A DNA stretch of 64,000 bases, taken from NCBI GenBank assembly GCA_030998225.1, contig JAPYXD010000723.1, forward strand, positions 23,577,501-23,641,500. Direction: 5' to 3'. Made by a program: the position numbers and the translations under genes. Positions 2,002 through 59,890 of this stretch are shown here, in pieces. Position 1 is the stretch's first letter. Each line of letters opens with the position of its first letter. Source of the DNA: Diplolepis rosae (taxonomy: Eukaryota > Arthropoda > Insecta > Hymenoptera > Diplolepididae). The notes under the pieces are model-generated. The model saw only the letters and a list, made by a program, of their open reading frames with translations. It did not search any database and was not told where the DNA came from.

Positions 2002-2037
2002 ATATTTTTTAAAAGAAATTTCAATAATCAATTAAAT

Positions 2038-3110
2038 TTACTTAAGGCTATATCAGCCTTAAGGAACACATTCTCATCATGGCATTCGCGCGCTTCGAGC
2101 TCGATTTTCTGTATACATTTCTGTAACTTTCTAATAATTTACATGATTAAAAAAAATCTATTTTCTTCCAAACTATTTTTTATTTCAAAGCTTACTTTGT
2201 ATCTCACATATTTGGCATAAAAAATGGAATTTTTAATTTTCAATATTTATAATTAAAATATTAAAGAATTTGAAAATCTTTCTGTGGAATTGAAACATAA
2301 AATATACATCTTGTCAAAAAATGTCCTACTGAGATTTTGTAGACCTCATTTAGGCAAATAATTTTTCATCTTAATGTTTTTTTCGTATGTCACAAATTTT
2401 GTTTAAATAATCGAATTTTTAAATTTTAATCGTATTTTTTTAAATTAAAAGGAACAATCTATGTTTTATAAGAAACTATGTCAGACAAAATTTGTAGACC
2501 TTACTGAAACAAACGATTTTGAAAACTTACGTTTTTCTCGCATTTTACATATTATTATTAAAAATTGAATTTTGATATTTGTAGATCTTTATGTAACAAA
2601 AAATTTTGTATCATAACTTTGTTCCCTACATCGTATAATATTACTGAAAAATGGAATTTAGATATTGACTTTTTCCAAGTTCTAACATACTGAAACTTTC
2701 CTAATTTTAGTTTAATCTAAAAATGTTATTGGGATAATTAGTAGAGATTTATGAGAACTATCAGAAATCAGTATTGGAATTGTGGAATTTTTCATAAATT
2801 TTTTTTCAAAAACACAAAAAATTCTTCTATTTTGACAATTTTTGTCGGATGTGGTGGTTAACGAACTTGTCCTTACTTTTTGGGTTCCGATAAAGTATGC
2901 CAAAACTCAATTCAATCCGATAATTCTATCAAGATTTATCGAGTATATGACATACAGACAGACATACACTTTCGTAAAAACCGTTTTTTCTGACTCAGGG
3001 TGTCTCAAAACTTAAAGATTTGATGAAAATTTCGAAAGTCATTTTTTGCATAAAACTAATACCTTCTTATCTATAATGAGAAAAAAAATAATAAGAAAAA
3101 ATTTGCAATA
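2038..3110 (+). repeat. 1.1 kb dispersed repeat, copy 1 (family E)
   Basis: This block matches, in reverse orientation, 24880-26035 from end to end, and partly 32025-32640. It starts with a short palindrome (CTTAAGGC...GCCTTAAG at 2043-2065), then an ATTCGCGCGCTTCG stretch. Next come several diverged units of ~150 bp, each with a TTTTTTCGTATGTCAC-like motif (near 2380, 2532 and 2620) and a TTTGTAGACCT motif. It ends with a conserved block: GGTTAACGAACTTGTCC, GACAGACATACACTTTCG and ATTTCGAAAGTCATTTTT. No coding frame is seen. It is a non-autonomous element of unknown class. Confidence 0.7.
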
Positions 3111-12975: not shown

Positions 12976-13017
12976 TCACTGATGAGGGCTCCGATCAGAG
13001 CCGAAACGTCTGATTAA
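12976..13017 (+). ncRNA. Hammerhead-ribozyme-like motif 1
   Basis: The core boxes of the hammerhead family are present in order. CTGATGA is at 12979-12985. A stem-loop GGCTC/GAGCC follows (12987-12991 with 12998-13002, loop CGATCA). Then come GAAAC at 13003-13007 and a GTC cleavage-type triplet at 13008-13010. A short stem I forms between TCA (12976) and TGA (13011). Stem III is only the self-complementary ACGT with no loop, as in the minimal hammerheads reported for Penelope-like elements, which are thought to act as dimers. One G (12986) is unpaired. The identical 42-mer recurs at 35009-35050. Confidence 0.6.
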
Positions 13018-17514: not shown

Positions 17515-17659
17515 TTTGAGAACATGTCTGCAATTATATTAACCCAAAATTCACAGAATTTTTATTCATTCTGTTATTTTGGCATAGGGTCAGATTCTTT
17601 TTATTTTCACATTAAAAATTATCAATGGCAGGTATAAAAAAACGTCAAAAGTAAGAAAA

Positions 17660-17695
17660 ACGTTTCGGCCACATGTGGGGGCCCTCTTCAGTGCC
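17660..17695 (-). ncRNA. Hammerhead-like motif 3 (minus strand)
   Basis: Read on the - strand: CTGAAGA (17691-17685), a GC stem-loop built from GGCC...GGCC, then GAAAC (17666-17662) and GTT. CTGANGA and GAAA are the invariant hammerhead boxes. Stem I pairing is poor (one pair), so activity is doubtful. It lies 270 bases from motif 4 on the same strand. Confidence 0.35.
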
Positions 17696-17930
17696 AGAAA
17701 TTAAAAGATTTATTCAAAATTTCATTAAAAGATTAAAATATAGGAGATTATTAAAATAAGGAAAAGCATAAAAATTAAAAACTTATCTCATAGCTTGCAA
17801 GTTAAAATGAAGCAGTCCGGTATGCATAACACGTATTGGAAAAATATGTAAAATTACAATATTAAATATTTTTGGTATTCTTAGTTGGCTTTCGGGTCCA
17901 GAAAAAATATAACTCAAAGTTTCATATTTT

Positions 17931-17966
17931 CAAACGTTTCAACTCAGATTGGAGTCATCAGTGAGA
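17931..17966 (-). ncRNA. Hammerhead-like motif 4 (minus strand)
   Basis: Read on the - strand: CTGATGA (17961-17955), stem-loop CTC-CAATCT-GAG, then GAAAC (17940-17936) and a GTT triplet. Stem I is better than in the other copies: TGAAAAT downstream pairs with ATTCTCA upstream, with one mismatch. Stem III is again the loop-less ACGT. Confidence 0.45.
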
Positions 17967-18009
17967 ATTTATTCCTATAAAAATACAAAAAGAAGAAACT
18001 TGAAAAAAT

Positions 18010-18775
18010 TGCACCTGTGACGGATAAAAAATGTGGTAACAAACAATAAAAATGAATTGCACGTGTGAAAACTATAGAATTGGTTTAAATAACTAAATTC
18101 ACAAAATATTAAAGACAACTAAGAACACGAACAATATTTAATATTAATACTAAGGGTCGATATAAGTCCTGTTCATTATTAATAATAATTAATGACTTTA
18201 GAAATCGTCGGTTAGAAAAAAGGTATCTATTCAGATAAAAAGGTAGGAAGGTACATATTTAGAAATTCATTTTTGTTACCCCATTTCAAGTTGCTAGGAA
18301 TGGCAATATTAAAAAAGAATCGTTTTAAAAATTGTATTCTCTTTCTCCCTTTCTCTGTGCGTCGCGCAAAATACACTTAAGAAAATGAAACCATTGTTTT
18401 TATAATAGATTAATATTAAATCCTTACATAAAAGAATGCTCTCATTATATTAGTGCATTTCACTTAATAGTAAATCTTAATATGATTAAATATTAAATCC
18501 TTATGAAAATAATAGTTCCATTTTTCCAAGTGCATTTTGCGCGAAAGGGATAAACAAAAGAGAAAATAATTTCTAAAATGAATTTTGAAAATATTGCTTC
18601 TAGCCTCTTTTCTGAGTAGGTACCTTATTGCTCCCAATCGAAGATATATACAAATTTTACTAAATTTAGTGCATATTTTCACTACCATCCAGACTTCTAA
18701 AAACTTTTATCTTTTTTCAATTGTTTAATAAATGTTAGCATTAATAATCTAGATACATCAAGAAAAGATTCATTG
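18010..18775. other. AT-rich, no gene recognised
   Basis: Two related CATTTTGCGCGAAA/GTCGCGCAAAATACACTT words (18360, 18530) suggest a diverged inverted repeat of ~200 bp around 18340-18560. No coding region. Confidence 0.35.
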
Positions 18776-21888: not shown

Positions 21889-22215
21889 CACATGACCAAA
21901 TATATTTTTCTAGGATAACCTTTTATGTAAACAAAACATTTTTATAACAATTTTCCAAATTCGCAAAATCCAATAAGAAACGTTTATCTGGTATACGTTT
22001 GAAAACAAAATTTAAACAGAAAATAAAATTGGGAATTTTATCGATAATTACATTTAATTATGAATTTTTTTGTAAAAGTTTTAGTAAAACGTACCAGTCA
22101 GAAGTTTTTTAGTGTATTCTTTTATATCTTCATAATTTTCAGAAAGATATTTTATGGGCAAAAAAACATAACTTACACAAATTTAAATTACAATGAAATC
22201 ACGTGGTCAGGTTGC
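21889..22215. mobile_element. CACGTGA-ended MITE, copy 1 (family K)
   Basis: Ends CCTGACCACATGA and, reversed, CCTGACCACGTGA. Interior blocks CAGAAAATAAAATTGG and TTTTCAGAAAGATATTTT are shared with 34667-35310, and more weakly with 27888-28210. Non-coding. Confidence 0.65.
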
Positions 22216-24879: not shown

Positions 24880-26035
24880 ATAATTGCGACAAAATTGTTT
24901 TTTTACATTCTCATCATGGATGAGAAGGTATTGGTTTTATGTGAAAAATGACTTTCGAAATTTTCATCAAATCTTTACGTTTTGAGACCCCCTGAGTCAG
25001 AAAAAATGGTTTTTACGAAAGTGTCTGTCTGTCTGTCTGTCTGTAGGTCGTGTGCGGCATAACTCTCGATAGAATTATCAGATTGAATTGAGCTTTGGTA
25101 CAATTTATCGGAGCCGAAAACGTAAGGACAAGTTCGTTAACCAGCCACATCCAATCAAAATTGAGGGGTTGAGCACTACTTTTGTGTTTTTGAAAATAAT
25201 TTTTTGAAAAAATCAAAAATTTCAATACTGGTTTTAGATAGTGCTCATAAATGTCTAAAAATTATCCTGATAACATTTTTTGATTAAATCAAAATTAGAA
25301 ATGTTACAGCATATTCAAATTCGAAAAAAGTCAATATCAAAATTCCATTTTCCAATTAAATTATACGAGATACGAAAAAACGTTATGATACAATATTATT
25401 GAATAAATAAAGACCTACAAATTTGAATTGTAACATTTTTCCATAAGATGCATATTTTTCTTTTTAATTAAAAAAAAAGCTATTGAAAATCCAAAATTCA
25501 ATTTTTTAACAATAATATGTAGAATAAGAAAAAAACGTAAGAATACAATGTTGTTAGTTTCAAAAAGATCTACAAGTTTTGTCTCACACAGTTTCTGATA
25601 AAAGATATATTTTTCGTTTCAATTCCAAAAAATATGATTAAAATTAAAAAATTCCATTTTTTAGACAAAATATGTGAAATACAAAAAAAACTTTGAGATG
25701 AAAAATTGTTTGGCTAAATAAGGTCTACACATTCTTATCGAGAAATTTCTCGACAGGATGTATATTTTAATTTTTTGATTTTTAATATTGAAAAAATTCG
25801 ATTTGTTTCACCAAAATATGTGAGATACGAAATAAGCGTTGTTCTGCAAAATCGTTTCCTTAAATAAAGTCTAGGATTGTTTTTCCTTTTTGAGATATTT
25901 GGAAGAAAATAAATTTATCAATAATCATGTAATTTATTAAAAAGTTACAAAAATGCATACAGAAAATCGAGCGCGAAGCGCGAGTGTCATGGTGAGAATG
26001 TGTTCCTTAAGGCCGATAGAGCCTTAAGTAAATTG
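24880..26035 (-). repeat. 1.1 kb dispersed repeat, copy 2 (family E)
   Basis: Reverse-oriented partner of 2038-3110 over its whole length. It contains (TGTC)n at 25022-25044. Four internal units, each with a GTGAGATACGAAA-like word near 25367, 25519, 25674 and 25816, give a period of about 142-155 bp. At its far end it carries GAGCGCGAAGCGCGAG (25972-25987) and CTTAAGGC...GCCTTAAG. No coding frame. Confidence 0.75.
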
Positions 26036-26165
26036 AATTTCCTGTTTCACTTAAATTCAAAAAGAAATAGAGTGACTTTGAGAAAATGACTAATTTACAT
26101 CATCTTTAATATCATTAAATTGGTTTGAGCTTCAGTATTAAATTATAAGAAATAAACTTAAACGT

Positions 26166-26468
26166 ATGCGAAGAACACAAGACCGAGCGCAAAGCGCGAG
26201 CTCCAGGAAGAACGGAGCGCGAAGCGCAACGTTCAAAAATTCCGGAGCGCGCAGCGCGACGATCGAGTATTACGGAGCGCGAAGCGCCACGATCGAATCG
26301 CGCGCCCTAGGCGCGCTCAAACTTGCGAGCGAAGCGCGCAATGAGAATGTGCCCGCGAAGCGGGCAGATTTTTTTAGTAATTTTTGTTGTTGTAACAAAA
26401 TTGTTGCTATTAACATAAAATTATTTTGCTGGGTCTTGTTTTGTTTTTCTGAGCAAAGTTTTTTTTAA
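26166..26468 (+). repeat. 30-bp array of GCGAAGC mini-hairpins
   Basis: GGAGCGCGAAGCGC-type palindromes recur with an exact 30-bp step (GAGCGC at 26185, 26215, 26245, 26275), separated by unlike AT-richer spacers. Further hairpins follow: GCGCGCCCTAGGCGCGC (26300-26316), GAGCGAAGCGCGC (26326 on) and TGCCCGC-GAA-GCGGGCA (26350-26366), then a T-run. GC content is far above the flanks. The open frame over it repeats ARSAT every 10 residues only because the unit is 30 bp, so I do not call a protein. It sits next to family E, whose end carries the same word. Confidence 0.8.
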
Positions 26469-27887: not shown

Positions 27888-28210
27888 GATCAAGTATATG
27901 GATGGATATATTTCTATGAGATTACTTTTTCTGTGAACAAAATACCTTTCTACATGTTTGAAAAATACGATCTGGTTCGTTTTTACAAAAATTCTGCTAA
28001 ATGTTTATCTAACAAAATATAAAACTTAAAATATTATTGGTAATTGCAGTTAATTGAATTTTTTTTCAAAATTCTCACCAATACGAAACAGACTGACGTC
28101 CTTTATTGTATTCTATTATATCTAAAAAATTTTAAAAATATATTTTGTGCGCGTAAAAATGTATCTTAAATGAATATAAATTATAATTAAGTCACGTGAT
28201 CATGTTCTTT
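27888..28210. mobile_element. CACGTGA-ended MITE, copy 2 (family K)
   Basis: Ends ACCTGATCAAG and, reversed, AACATGATCACGTGACTT. The interior ACGAAACAGACTGACGTC and TCTATTATATCT blocks align loosely with 22085-22135 and 35230-35275. More diverged than the other copies. Confidence 0.45.
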
Positions 28211-34666: not shown

Positions 34667-34776
34667 GGGCCACGTGATTAAAACATATATTAATTTCTTC
34701 TTGCAAGATAACTTTTTGAATTGACAAAATATCTTTCTTAATATTTGGGAAACATTTAAGAAAAGACACTAAAGAA

Positions 34777-35105
34777 GATAATTAAAATGGTAGATTGTAT
34801 TGACCCTTCATTTAATTTATAATACTTGGTACGTTTGCATTGGCTTTAGGGTCCATAACATCTTACAGCGAGTTGGTGGGAAATTATGTGTCTTCTAAAA
34901 ATATTTCATAGAAAACGGAAAAAAGGATAAAAAATTCTGTATTCAATCAAAGTTTTTTACTAAAGGAAAAGGATTCCCTACTTCCTACATAGAAGATTTT
35001 AATAAATATCACTGATGAGGGCTCCGATCAGAGCCGAAACGTCTGATTAAATAGACTTTTTCATTTATGGTCCCTAAAGCCAATGCAAATGTACCAAGTA
35101 TTATA
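34777..35105 (+). mobile_element. Hammerhead-bearing insertion with 11-bp target duplication
   Basis: The block is flanked by ACACTAAAGAA at 34766-34776 and again at 35106-35116, as expected of a target-site duplication. Inside are ~40-bp inverted arms (AATACTTGGTACGTTTGCAT at 34823, its reverse to ~35105) and hammerhead motif 2 just before the right arm. It has no coding capacity and is too short for an autonomous element. Penelope-like elements carry hammerheads in their terminal repeats and make variable-length duplications, so a non-autonomous Penelope-like relative is the best guess. Confidence 0.6.
35009..35050 (+). ncRNA. Hammerhead-ribozyme-like motif 2
   Basis: Identical over 42 bases to motif 1. 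CTGATGA is at 35012-35018, stem II is GGCTC/GAGCC (35020-35024 with 35031-35035), GAAAC is at 35036-35040 and the triplet GTC at 35041-35043. Stem I TCA/TGA is extended by one A-T pair. The flanks differ from motif 1, so the core is conserved beyond its surroundings. Confidence 0.6.
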
Positions 35106-35310
35106 CACTAAAGAACGTCTGATAATTTCTTTTTAGTAAAAATTGAGGAAAAAATTTGTTTACAGAAAATAAAATTGGATGTTCTATTGACAATTACGCA
35201 GTTATCTGTGAAATTGTTTGCAAAATTTTTATTAAAACGAAATTAACAGACGTTTTGTATTTTCTTCTGTTGTATTTCCTAAATTTTCAGAAAGATATTT
35301 TGTAAACTAA

Positions 35311-37550
35311 ACAATTTTTTTTGGTCCAACAAAATTTTTGTGTTGGGTTTTTTTGTTGGGCTAAACATTTTTTTTTTTCTGGCCAGACAAAATGTTTTTG
35401 TTTCCTTAGTAAAATGATTGTTGGCTTTACAAAATATCATTGTAGGTAGAAATAAATGCCGTGTAAGGTGGGAAAAAATATTTGTTGTGCTTTATAAACT
35501 GAATTCGTAATAAAAAGTCATTTATTAATTTATTCAATTATAATTTAGATCCACTTTTATTAAAAAGTAATATGTTCTGCGAAGTTTCATTAATCAAAAT
35601 CAACTAATTTTCTTCTGTTAAACTCTGATTAGTGAAATTCAACTTTAAAAAGTTATCTTCAAATAAAAATCAATTTTATTTATATTGGAGATTTTGGAAA
35701 ACGTGCTCCATTTCTAGATGAGGTGAATTAGTACGCATGCGTGGTCGGGCATTTAGTTTAGTTAATCAGAAAGTTTTGATAACTCAACAAAAGACTCCAT
35801 AAAATAATTTTGTGAGGCAAACAAAAAATTTGAGTATGAGAAGAAGAGTTTTCAGCGTATATTTTACAAATACTATTGCCACTAGGCAACAGTTTTTTTG
35901 CTTAAAGTATTAAATTTAAGTTAATTTCACATATTCGATTGAGTTTTGTTTGACACGATTATCAGAGGTATGCAAAGATTGTAATAAAGGACATTGCATG
36001 TTGCAATAATTTGCAAATGCCTATTAAGAATTATTGGAGCAAGTAAAGGTATGCATAGTCCGGGCCATAGTGTTGGTCACCTTATAATTTACACGAGATA
36101 GCGATATATTAACTGAGATCATTATTCTGCATATCACAGTAAACCTTAACAGATCAAACTCTGATCCACTTTTGAAAGTAAAAAAATAAATATTTGCACA
36201 AGTTCACTCGTATCTGTCGAGCTTCAATTGTTACTTGTTTATTTATTTATGTTTTTTTTACTATGTTACTTTGGTAACAGGTGATTGATTCCGATAATCG
36301 GATCATTTTGGTCCGCAATTTCGAATTAAAAAAAAATCCTGAAATTTGTATCAAAGTGTTGCAGATCATTTTGATCCAATTTCGGGATCAAATATAATAA
36401 AAAGTGATTTCAGAATAAATAATGTAAAAATATTGTTTTTAATAATTGCTATATAGAAATTCTGCTTATAGAGATTAAAGGAAATTTTTAAAATAGATTA
36501 GTCTTAACGATCTTTAATTTAGTTGTTCGTGTTGCATGTACGATCTATATTCTATATCCGTAGGCTAGAATGGCACGGTGCGACGTTGAAATAAATAGCT
36601 GGAGCCTAACCGCAGATGTTAATACGGCCGATACTCCCTGTGGTGGCAGTGCAATTTGTAACTGCTTCCATCTGTTGTAGATACGACGTTCGTCTAGTAG
36701 CTGGACTCCATTGCCTATTATTGTTGATTATAGCGTTTAGCCCACGAAGTGCCGTAACAGGTATGTGGGTAGGGCCCTTGCAAAGTATTATACCGCCGCG
36801 CCGCGCCGCACCGCGCCGCACCGTTGCGGTTACAGCTAAACGTGTCAGATATCAGGAATAAAATATAAATATAGATGTATCAGTTGTAAGCTATTCGAAC
36901 CACACATTTAGAAGTTTAACACCTGGAAGAGAAATCTAATTTGACCTCCCCTTTCACAACCCTTTAAAATCTCATCTATTTTATAATTTTCATCTCTCCC
37001 AATACTTATAGATTTATTAGATATATCATTCAAGAGAAATGTTTTGAAATAGTCTAATATTAGGAATTCATATGATTAATAATCATCAATATTTTTTTAT
37101 GTAAGGATGGAAAGGTTGGAGATATAGCACACAAATTTTAAATTACTGTTAGAACTCAATGCTATTCCATTTCTTCACGTTATTGTTTGGAGGTCGTACT
37201 GAATTATGATTTGTTAATTAACAGTAATGAATTTTCATTGATTTTGATCACATTTTGTTTGTTGAGTCCTCTAATTCAATGATCTAAAGTAATAGAAAAA
37301 AATTGTATATATATATATAATATATTAGTCGGATTAACAAAAAAAATTCACAATCTTCATGACAAATTATTTCGAACTCAACCACCTAATTAAAAACAAT
37401 CTTTTTTTCAAATAATTACACTCGCTTGAAAAAAAATAGAGTATAACCAAGTTTTAACAATGATGTCAATTATTTTTGCAGCAATCTTCTATTTTTAGTA
37501 GTTTCATTCTAACAAATATATTTTATATAATGTTCATGAAAAATATGTAA
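35311..37550. other. AT-rich, no gene; GC microsatellite at 36794-36825
   Basis: 36794-36825 is a (CCGCG/CCGCA)n run. The opposing frames across it (71 and 81 codons) are low-complexity shadows. 36290-36390 holds GATCATTTTG/GATCAAAATG words. Nothing else supported. Confidence 0.4.
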
Positions 37551-56589: not shown

Positions 56590-57075
56590 TTTAGTACAGC
56601 TGATTAAATCAATAGAATAACTTTCAAGCAAGAGTTTTCTACAATAATGAATTTATTTAAGCTGAAACTTTAGGGCATAATAAAGGACATACGAGCGGAT
56701 GGCTGTAGACTTCCATTAGTTCTAAACAATAATAAAATAATAATTTAAAATTAGGTGGTTGAATTCGAAATTTTTGCCACTACGCCTGCGTAGCTCAGTT
56801 GGTTAGAGCAGTCGACCGGCAATCAAGAGACCAAGGCTCAAATCTTGGCACAGTCGAAAGCGTCTCTTTTTCCACAGAAAGATTTCAAATTCTTAAAAAA
56901 AAAATCCCTATTTTACCGACACCAAAATTATTTTAATTGCTAAAAACTAATTAAAGCCTATAGCCATCCGCTAATATCTCCTTTAGTATGTTTTAAAGTT
57001 TCAGCTAAAAAAATTCCTTATGATTGAAAAATCCTAGGGGAAACTGATTTTATTGATTTAATCGGCTGTATACTA
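56590..57075. repeat. Foldback, ~135-bp arms, SINE in the loop
   Basis: TACAGCTGATTAAATCAATA, AGCTGAAACTTTA and GCGGATGGCTGTAG on the left are inverted at 56943-57075. The unpaired centre holds the SINE. Confidence 0.75.
56784..56904 (+). mobile_element. tRNA-derived SINE
   Basis: The head GCCTGCGTAGCTCAGTTGG has a clear Pol III A box (TAGCTCAGTTGG, 56791-56802) and D-stem. GGCTCAAATCT (56835-56845) is a B box with a T-arm-like CCAAG/CTTGG stem. The anticodon arm does not fold properly, so it is not a working tRNA. A ~45-base tail follows (CAGTCGAAAGCGTCTC...) and then a short A-run (56895-56904). Window positions 1-50 are a second copy's tail. Confidence 0.8.
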
Positions 57076-59769: not shown

Positions 59770-59890
59770 TTTTCATAGCGTCTCCTTTGAAAATCCGATT
59801 TTCGGTACCTGTAGAGTGGATTGAATCTACAATTTTCAACCCGCTCTACAGGTACCGAAAATCGGATTTTCAAAGGAGGCGCTATGAAAA
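59770..59890 (+). repeat. 50-bp near-perfect hairpin
   Basis: Arms 59770-59819 and 59841-59890 pair over 50 positions with only two differences, both giving G-U pairs in a + strand RNA. The loop is 21 bases. It could be a hairpin RNA source or a foldback element. Confidence 0.85.

What the first reader, a model, noticed from the sequence alone, without database searches (positions are those of the whole stretch)
12976..13017. Hammerhead-ribozyme core, identical to a second copy 22 kb away
A 42-base match carrying every conserved hammerhead box (CTGATGA, stem II, GAAAC, GTC, short stem I) is shared with 35009-35050 while the flanks differ. Stem III is a loop-less ACGT, as in the minimal hammerheads of Penelope-like elements. 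Conservation of the core alone suggests selection or recent amplification for the RNA structure.
Basis: partly seen in the sequence, partly recalled or inferred. Interest (0 to 1): 0.85.

Follow-up and report, generated by a model that had tools for sequence, protein, structure and literature searches.

The report
Minimal hammerhead in small retroelement
Two far-apart spots carry the same short motif that looks like a self-cutting RNA, and one of them sits in a 328-base jumping element whose ends can be drawn to the base, most likely a small retroelement of a kind already known from animals.

Summary
The 42-mer is real, exact at both places and far beyond chance. It has the complete hammerhead core with a loop-less ACGU in place of helix III, plus one extra G between A9 and stem II. 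Rfam has no match at its cut-off; copy 1 scores a weak sub-threshold Hammerhead_3 and copy 2 nothing. ACGU cannot close on itself in one molecule but gives 4 bp between two.

New here: copy 2 is not a bare core. It lies in a 328-nt insertion (34777-35104) bounded by an 11-nt target-site duplication; three relatives of the surrounding repeat show the site uninterrupted. The insertion ends in an inverted repeat that would form a long hairpin, 61 nt after the predicted cut. A decayed relative on the minus strand (about 18179-17858) shares this plan with a broken hammerhead. The likeliest reading is a non-autonomous, retrozyme-like retroelement; movement by Penelope-like machinery is inferred. Copy 1 shares only the ribozyme, and no carrier was found.

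Probably a new member of a known kind. Selection and recent spread cannot be told apart from two copies; the host genome search did not complete (15 tries).

The parts
12976..13017 (+). copy 1: 42-nt minimal hammerhead motif; predicted cut after 13010; no carrier element found
35009..35050 (+). copy 2: the same 42 nt; predicted cut after 35043
34777..35104 (+). 328-nt insertion that carries copy 2
34766..34776 (+). left copy of the 11-nt target-site duplication ACACTAAAGAA
35105..35115 (+). right copy of the 11-nt target-site duplication
34811..34858 (+). left arm of the inverted repeat (48 nt, 92%), starting 34 nt inside the insertion
35065..35112 (+). right arm of the inverted repeat; its last 8 nt fall in the target-site duplication
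17858..18179 (-). decayed relative of the insertion; limits approximate, no target-site duplication identified
17933..17961 (-). broken hammerhead of that relative (3 nt of stem II missing, U at position 17)
17659..17691 (-). fourth hammerhead-like motif, stem I lost; no element found; could be chance

Best explanation
Copy 2 is the ribozyme of a 328-nt non-autonomous retroelement of the retrozyme or Penelope-associated kind. Shown by sequence: a discrete insertion with an 11-nt target-site duplication, a hammerhead core near its 3' end, an inverted repeat that would fold into a long hairpin ending at the insertion's 3' end, and a decayed relative of the same plan. Inferred: in a multimeric RNA, hammerheads of two units pair up, their palindromic ACGU giving the 4-bp helix III that one unit cannot form, and cut the RNA into units; a unit RNA, perhaps circular, is copied into an AT-rich target by a reverse transcriptase made elsewhere, most likely of a Penelope-like element, starting at the foot of the hairpin, so that the cut site ends up inside the new copy. 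Copy 1 carries the same ribozyme in unrelated sequence: a fragment of such an element, or a second family sharing the ribozyme.
For: Exact core twice, 0 in 100 shuffles. The 11-mer of the duplication occurs exactly twice in the window, both strands searched; 34 of 20,000 random 131-nt stretches (those within 600 nt of the site skipped) held any of the 21 11-mers around the right boundary. Flanks joined there align without a gap at the junction to 3 of 3 relatives (two elsewhere in the window, one the same repeat's own right arm), scores 87, 84, 113 against 56/49, 47/51, 66/54 for left/right flank alone. Inverted repeat 0 of 500 shuffles; relative's inverted repeat 0 of 500. Relative: left ends 5 of 1000 shuffles as good, whole alignment 0 of 200. 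Fold of the insertion -106.2 kcal/mol, z -9.45. The double-hammerhead pairing is nested and evaluates to -18.9 and -18.3 kcal/mol. Animal retrozymes: 170-400 nt, target-site duplications above 4 bp (PMC7229834). PAc element: copying starts in a stem loop downstream of its hammerhead, at AT-rich targets (PMC11167929 passages).
Against: No Rfam match at cut-off; extra G next to the core. Other folds are more stable in silico: dimers -34.4 and -33.8, tandem pairs -31.4 and -30.8 against -15.9 and -15.3 for the double hammerhead, and monomers in which GAUG pairs with CGUC. No tandem units at copy 2 or the relative. No intact reverse transcriptase frame: one stop-to-stop frame of at least 150 aa; 10 of 58 frames of at least 45 aa near the copies tested against Pfam, none at cut-off. 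Only two of four arm-to-arm comparisons between insertion and relative beat shuffles clearly (7 and 1 of 500, against 186 and 115 of 500), and the shared TATYGACCCTT is by itself at chance level (34 of 100 shuffles). Published invertebrate retrozymes mostly have a stable helix III. No RNA data.
Confidence: 0.66

Rival explanations
1. Both 42-mers are leftover pieces of pLTRs of autonomous Penelope-like elements; there is no separate small element, and the 328-nt insertion is a truncated Penelope copy.
For: Minimal hammerheads are known from Penelope pLTRs, and many are dispersed (passages of PMC7761336). The 3' end in a stem loop downstream of the hammerhead resembles PAc (passages).
Against: The relative has matching left and right ends, which random truncation would not give. 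No Penelope gene seen in the window (partial test).
Confidence: 0.2
2. The insertion is a MITE, moved by a transposase, which picked up a hammerhead by accident.
For: 48-nt inverted repeat at 92% around the ribozyme and a similar one in the relative.
Against: The left arm starts 34 nt inside the insertion and the duplication is 11 nt.
Confidence: 0.08
3. The 42-mer is a repeated sequence that only resembles a hammerhead and has no RNA function.
For: No Rfam hit at cut-off, extra G, unremarkable folding of the short pieces.
Against: Every conserved core position is present in both copies, with stems I and II and the ACGU plan of published minimal forms.
Confidence: 0.06

Closest known systems
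Minimal type I hammerheads of Penelope-like elements and Terminons, and the dispersed ones in animal genomes (Cervera and de la Pena 2014; Lunse, Weinberg and Breaker 2017; neither held here, known through passages of PMC7761336 and PMC6155905)
   Same: Core; no free nucleotides in helix III; dispersed in non-coding DNA; thought to cut as dimers
   Different: Here one copy sits in a small element with both ends and a target-site duplication; one extra G after A9; no Penelope gene seen. Whether the published motifs also have the extra nucleotide was not checked
Non-LTR retrozymes of animals (Cervera and de la Pena 2020, PMC7229834)
   Same: Length (328 within 170-400 nt), low G+C, target-site duplication above 4 bp, strongly self-paired RNA
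   Different: Published invertebrate ones mostly have a stable helix III and occur in tandem; neither is seen here. Amphibian ones (about 330-350 nt, short helix III, better cutting as dimers) are nearest
PAc, a Penelope-like element of Anolis (PMC11167929)
   Same: Hammerhead upstream of a stem loop in which copying starts; AT-rich target
   Different: PAc codes for its own protein; its hammerhead was inactive without protein and not needed for insertion in vitro

Membership tests
Hammerhead ribozyme | C3 U4 G5 A6 N7 G8 A9, G12 A13 A14, A15.1 and U16.1, H17 | tested here: met
   read directly in both copies
Hammerhead ribozyme | Stem II joins the core without extra nucleotides | tested here: inconclusive
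   one extra G after A9, or a bulge within GGG; five stem II pairs form in the folds of both copies
Hammerhead ribozyme | Rfam match at gathering score | tested here: not met
   none in the window; 18.1 of 48.5 bits for copy 1, none for copy 2
Hammerhead ribozyme | Self-cleavage after position 17 | not testable with these tools
   needs in vitro transcription
Minimal (Penelope-type) hammerhead | Helix III without free nucleotides | tested here: met
   GAA-ACGU-C in both copies; 4 bp between two copies, nested
Minimal (Penelope-type) hammerhead | Lies in the pLTR of a Penelope-like element (some do, many do not) | tested here: inconclusive
   no long frame in the window; only 10 of 58 short frames near the copies tested, no match at cut-off
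Non-LTR retrozyme of animals | Unit of about 170-400 nt with a type I hammerhead | tested here: met
   328 nt; coding content not tested apart
Non-LTR retrozyme of animals | Target-site duplication, where present, above 4 bp | tested here: met
   11 nt with empty sites
Non-LTR retrozyme of animals | Tandem dimers or multimers in the genome | tested here: not met
   single unit at copy 2, none in tandem in the window; the rest of the genome could not be searched
Non-LTR retrozyme of animals | Linear and circular unit RNA | not testable with these tools
   no RNA data
MITE | Inverted repeats at both ends and a short fixed target-site duplication | tested here: not met
   left arm 34 nt inside the insertion; duplication 11 nt

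The most novel reading that the evidence does not exclude
Part of the scattered hammerheads without helix III in invertebrates belong to small non-autonomous elements built as hammerhead plus long hairpin, with copying started at the foot of that hairpin, and unrelated element bodies can carry the very same ribozyme, so the ribozyme passes between families as a module.
Probability: 0.27. Interest if true: 0.55.

Novelty: new member of a known kind. Interest (0 to 1): 0.36.

Why it matters
[quoted passage not shown] A copy with both ends, a target-site duplication and uninterrupted relatives of the site gives a concrete unit to count, transcribe and test: whether it cuts only as a dimer, and whether its hairpin is where copying starts.

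Tried and rejected
Rejected. (a) A MITE, once the empty-site comparison put the left end outside the left arm. (b) Homology of copy 1's flanks to those of the other three motifs: of eight flank comparisons, one involving copy 1 was low (right flank against the 3' side of the 17961 motif, 1 of 300), but it aligns an AT-rich stretch outside the relative's element and is not counted; the 0 of 300 for the left flanks of the two minus-strand motifs is void, because the two stretches overlap. (c) A duplication longer than 11 nt through GATAATT: the relative has a matching left end, so I count these letters as element; this is a judgement. (d) A covariance model of the four motifs: aligned, not built, because two are nearly identical and the third aligned badly.

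Led nowhere. Scans of viral contigs for a slightly loosened core (0) and for the arm sequence (0); genome contigs, bacteria and archaea, for a loosened core (0); a looser viral scan gave one contig, L001. The phage collection at distant setting gave 49 records, the 20 listed ones all weak (best E 0.3) and over the AT-rich flank, not the core. Ten of 58 frames near the copies against Pfam: two weak rows (E 0.024 and 0.12), both under the cut-off. Six paper searches: I saw listings of 10 to 25 papers each; none was recognisably about such an element, but most subscription papers are not held and the two closest papers are not held.

Full report
Observation. The 42-mer stands at 12976-13017 and 35009-35050, both on +. 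Its 32-nt core is exact in both, has no third match within three mismatches in the window, and gave 0 in 100 shuffles. BLAST lengthens the match to 70 nt at 90%, but the flanks are no more alike than shuffled ones. The window is AT-rich (27.5-38.1% G+C in 2-kb steps) with one stop-to-stop frame of 150 aa or more. It looks like eukaryotic non-coding DNA; the host was not identified.

The motif. Stem I is UCA/UGA, with a fourth pair G-U in copy 1 and A-U in copy 2. Then follow CUGAUGA, an extra G, stem II GGCUC/GAGCC with loop CGAUCA, GAA, ACGU and C17. The extra G can also be drawn as a bulge in stem II; Rfam's alignment shows it as an insertion after A9. ACGU is a palindrome: in one molecule it has no loop to close, between two units it gives 4 bp. 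The double hammerhead of two copies is nested and evaluates to -18.9 and -18.3 kcal/mol. In silico this is not the favoured fold: the best dimers reach -34.4 and -33.8, the best tandem pairs -31.4 and -30.8, and short pieces of both copies fold no better than many shuffles (z -0.80 and -1.77). Rfam has no hammerhead at gathering score in the window. In 401-nt stretches copy 1 gets Hammerhead_3 at 18.1 bits (cut-off 48.5, E 0.33) and copy 2 nothing. A stretch of L001, a viral contig that my pattern with the extra purine found, reads by eye as a three-stem type III hammerhead and is also missed by Rfam at E up to 1. If it is one, Rfam's silence says little.

The carrier of copy 2. A 48-nt inverted repeat (92%) flanks the ribozyme (0 of 500 shuffles), which suggested a MITE. 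The surroundings decide otherwise. Copy 2 lies within a repeat that has relatives at about 22000-22175 and 27975-28175 (minus) and in its own right arm at 35195-35345 (minus). ACACTAAAGAA stands once, with changes, in these three and twice here, at 34766-34776 and 35105-35115. The exact 11-mer occurs only at these two places in the window. Of 20,000 random 131-nt stretches (those near the site skipped) 34 held any of the 21 11-mers around the right boundary. The flanks joined at that point align without a gap at the junction to all three relatives, scoring 87, 84 and 113, more than either flank alone. The insertion is therefore 34777-35104, 328 nt. Its left end lies 34 nt outside the left arm; its right end lies in the right arm, 8 nt before the arm's outer end. 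An 11-nt duplication and unequal ends fit retrotransposition better than cut-and-paste.

A relative. On the minus strand, about 18179-17858, lies a stretch with a like left end (5 of 1000 shuffles as good), an inverted repeat of 35 nt (30/35; 0 of 500) and a decayed hammerhead. The whole alignment with the insertion scores 104.5, shuffles at most 92 in 200. TTGGCTTTNGGGTCC, the inner end of the arms, occurs within 2 mismatches at three places in the window, all in these arms, and 0 of 100 shuffles have three. Weaker points: of four arm-to-arm comparisons two are clear (7 and 1 of 500) and two not (186 and 115 of 500); TATYGACCCTT at the left is at chance level when searched alone; no target-site duplication was identified for the relative. 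Its hammerhead lacks 3 nt of stem II. A fourth motif at 17691-17659, minus, keeps the core and the extra G but not stem I. It has no inverted repeat (143 of 500) and may be chance: 13 of 40 random sequences gave at least one hit in the same relaxed scan. Copy 1 has no inverted repeat (321 of 500) and no exact direct repeat of 11 nt across it within 500 nt on either side.

How it most likely works. Shown: an insertion with a ribozyme-like core and a hairpin (fold -106.2 kcal/mol, z -9.45, no shuffle of 100 as good). Inferred: hammerheads of neighbouring units in a multimeric RNA cut in pairs; the unit RNA is copied into an AT-rich target by a protein made elsewhere. In PAc, a Penelope-like element of Anolis, copying starts internally in a stem loop downstream of the hammerhead, at AT-rich sites (passages of PMC11167929). 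In copy 2 the 3' end of the insertion lies 61 nt after the predicted cut, at the foot of the hairpin. Were the template a circle, the two ends of the insertion would be neighbours at the open side of that hairpin, and the cut site would come to lie inside the copy, as seen. This is a hypothesis. In PAc the hammerhead showed no activity without protein and was not needed for insertion in vitro, so cutting need not be part of integration.

Known kinds. Reviews say that many animal genomes hold thousands of minimal type I hammerheads, most dispersed in non-coding DNA and some in Penelope pLTRs, possibly cutting as dimers (passages of PMC7761336; PMC6155905). In the coral Acropora millepora, 1508 of more than 6000 motifs were canonical and the others minimal (passage of PMC7229834). 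Animal retrozymes are about 170-400 nt, low in G+C, with duplications above 4 bp (PMC7229834: abstract, passages, Discussion). Most invertebrate ones cut as monomers through a stable helix III; amphibian ones cut better as dimers. The insertion fits in length, duplication and dimer type, but no tandem copies were seen and RNA cannot be tested. I file it as a probable new member of a known kind, not as a proven retrozyme. The two papers on the minimal motifs are not held.

Open. The host genome could not be searched (15 unanswered calls, last). Copy number, ends of other copies, tandem arrays and the carrier of copy 1 stay unknown. Two intact copies cannot separate selection from recent spread.

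Noticed in passing
L001:3709-3763 (IMGVR_UViG_3300038701_000842): Viral contig with what reads by eye as a type III hammerhead: GACGT/ACGTC, ACGGGC/GCCCGT, CTGAAGA, extra G, GGCC/GGCC, GAAAC. The search pattern asked for the extra purine; Rfam finds nothing there at E up to 1.
   Followed up: partly
34704-35345, 22003-22166, 27980-28160: An AT-rich, partly palindromic repeat family; the element of copy 2 is inserted in the left arm of one member.
   Followed up: partly
2006-3091 and 24899-26063: An inverted repeat pair in six listed pieces, 80-90% complementary, spanning about 1.1 kb, 22-24 kb apart.
   Followed up: no
59770-59890: 56-nt inverted repeat, 95% complementary, 9 nt between the arms (I17).
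   Followed up: no
26185-26297: 30-nt tandem repeat with GGAGCGCGAAGCGC in AT-rich surroundings.
   Followed up: no
56784-56856: tRNA-like sequence, 33 bits, the only Rfam match at gathering score in the window.
   Followed up: no
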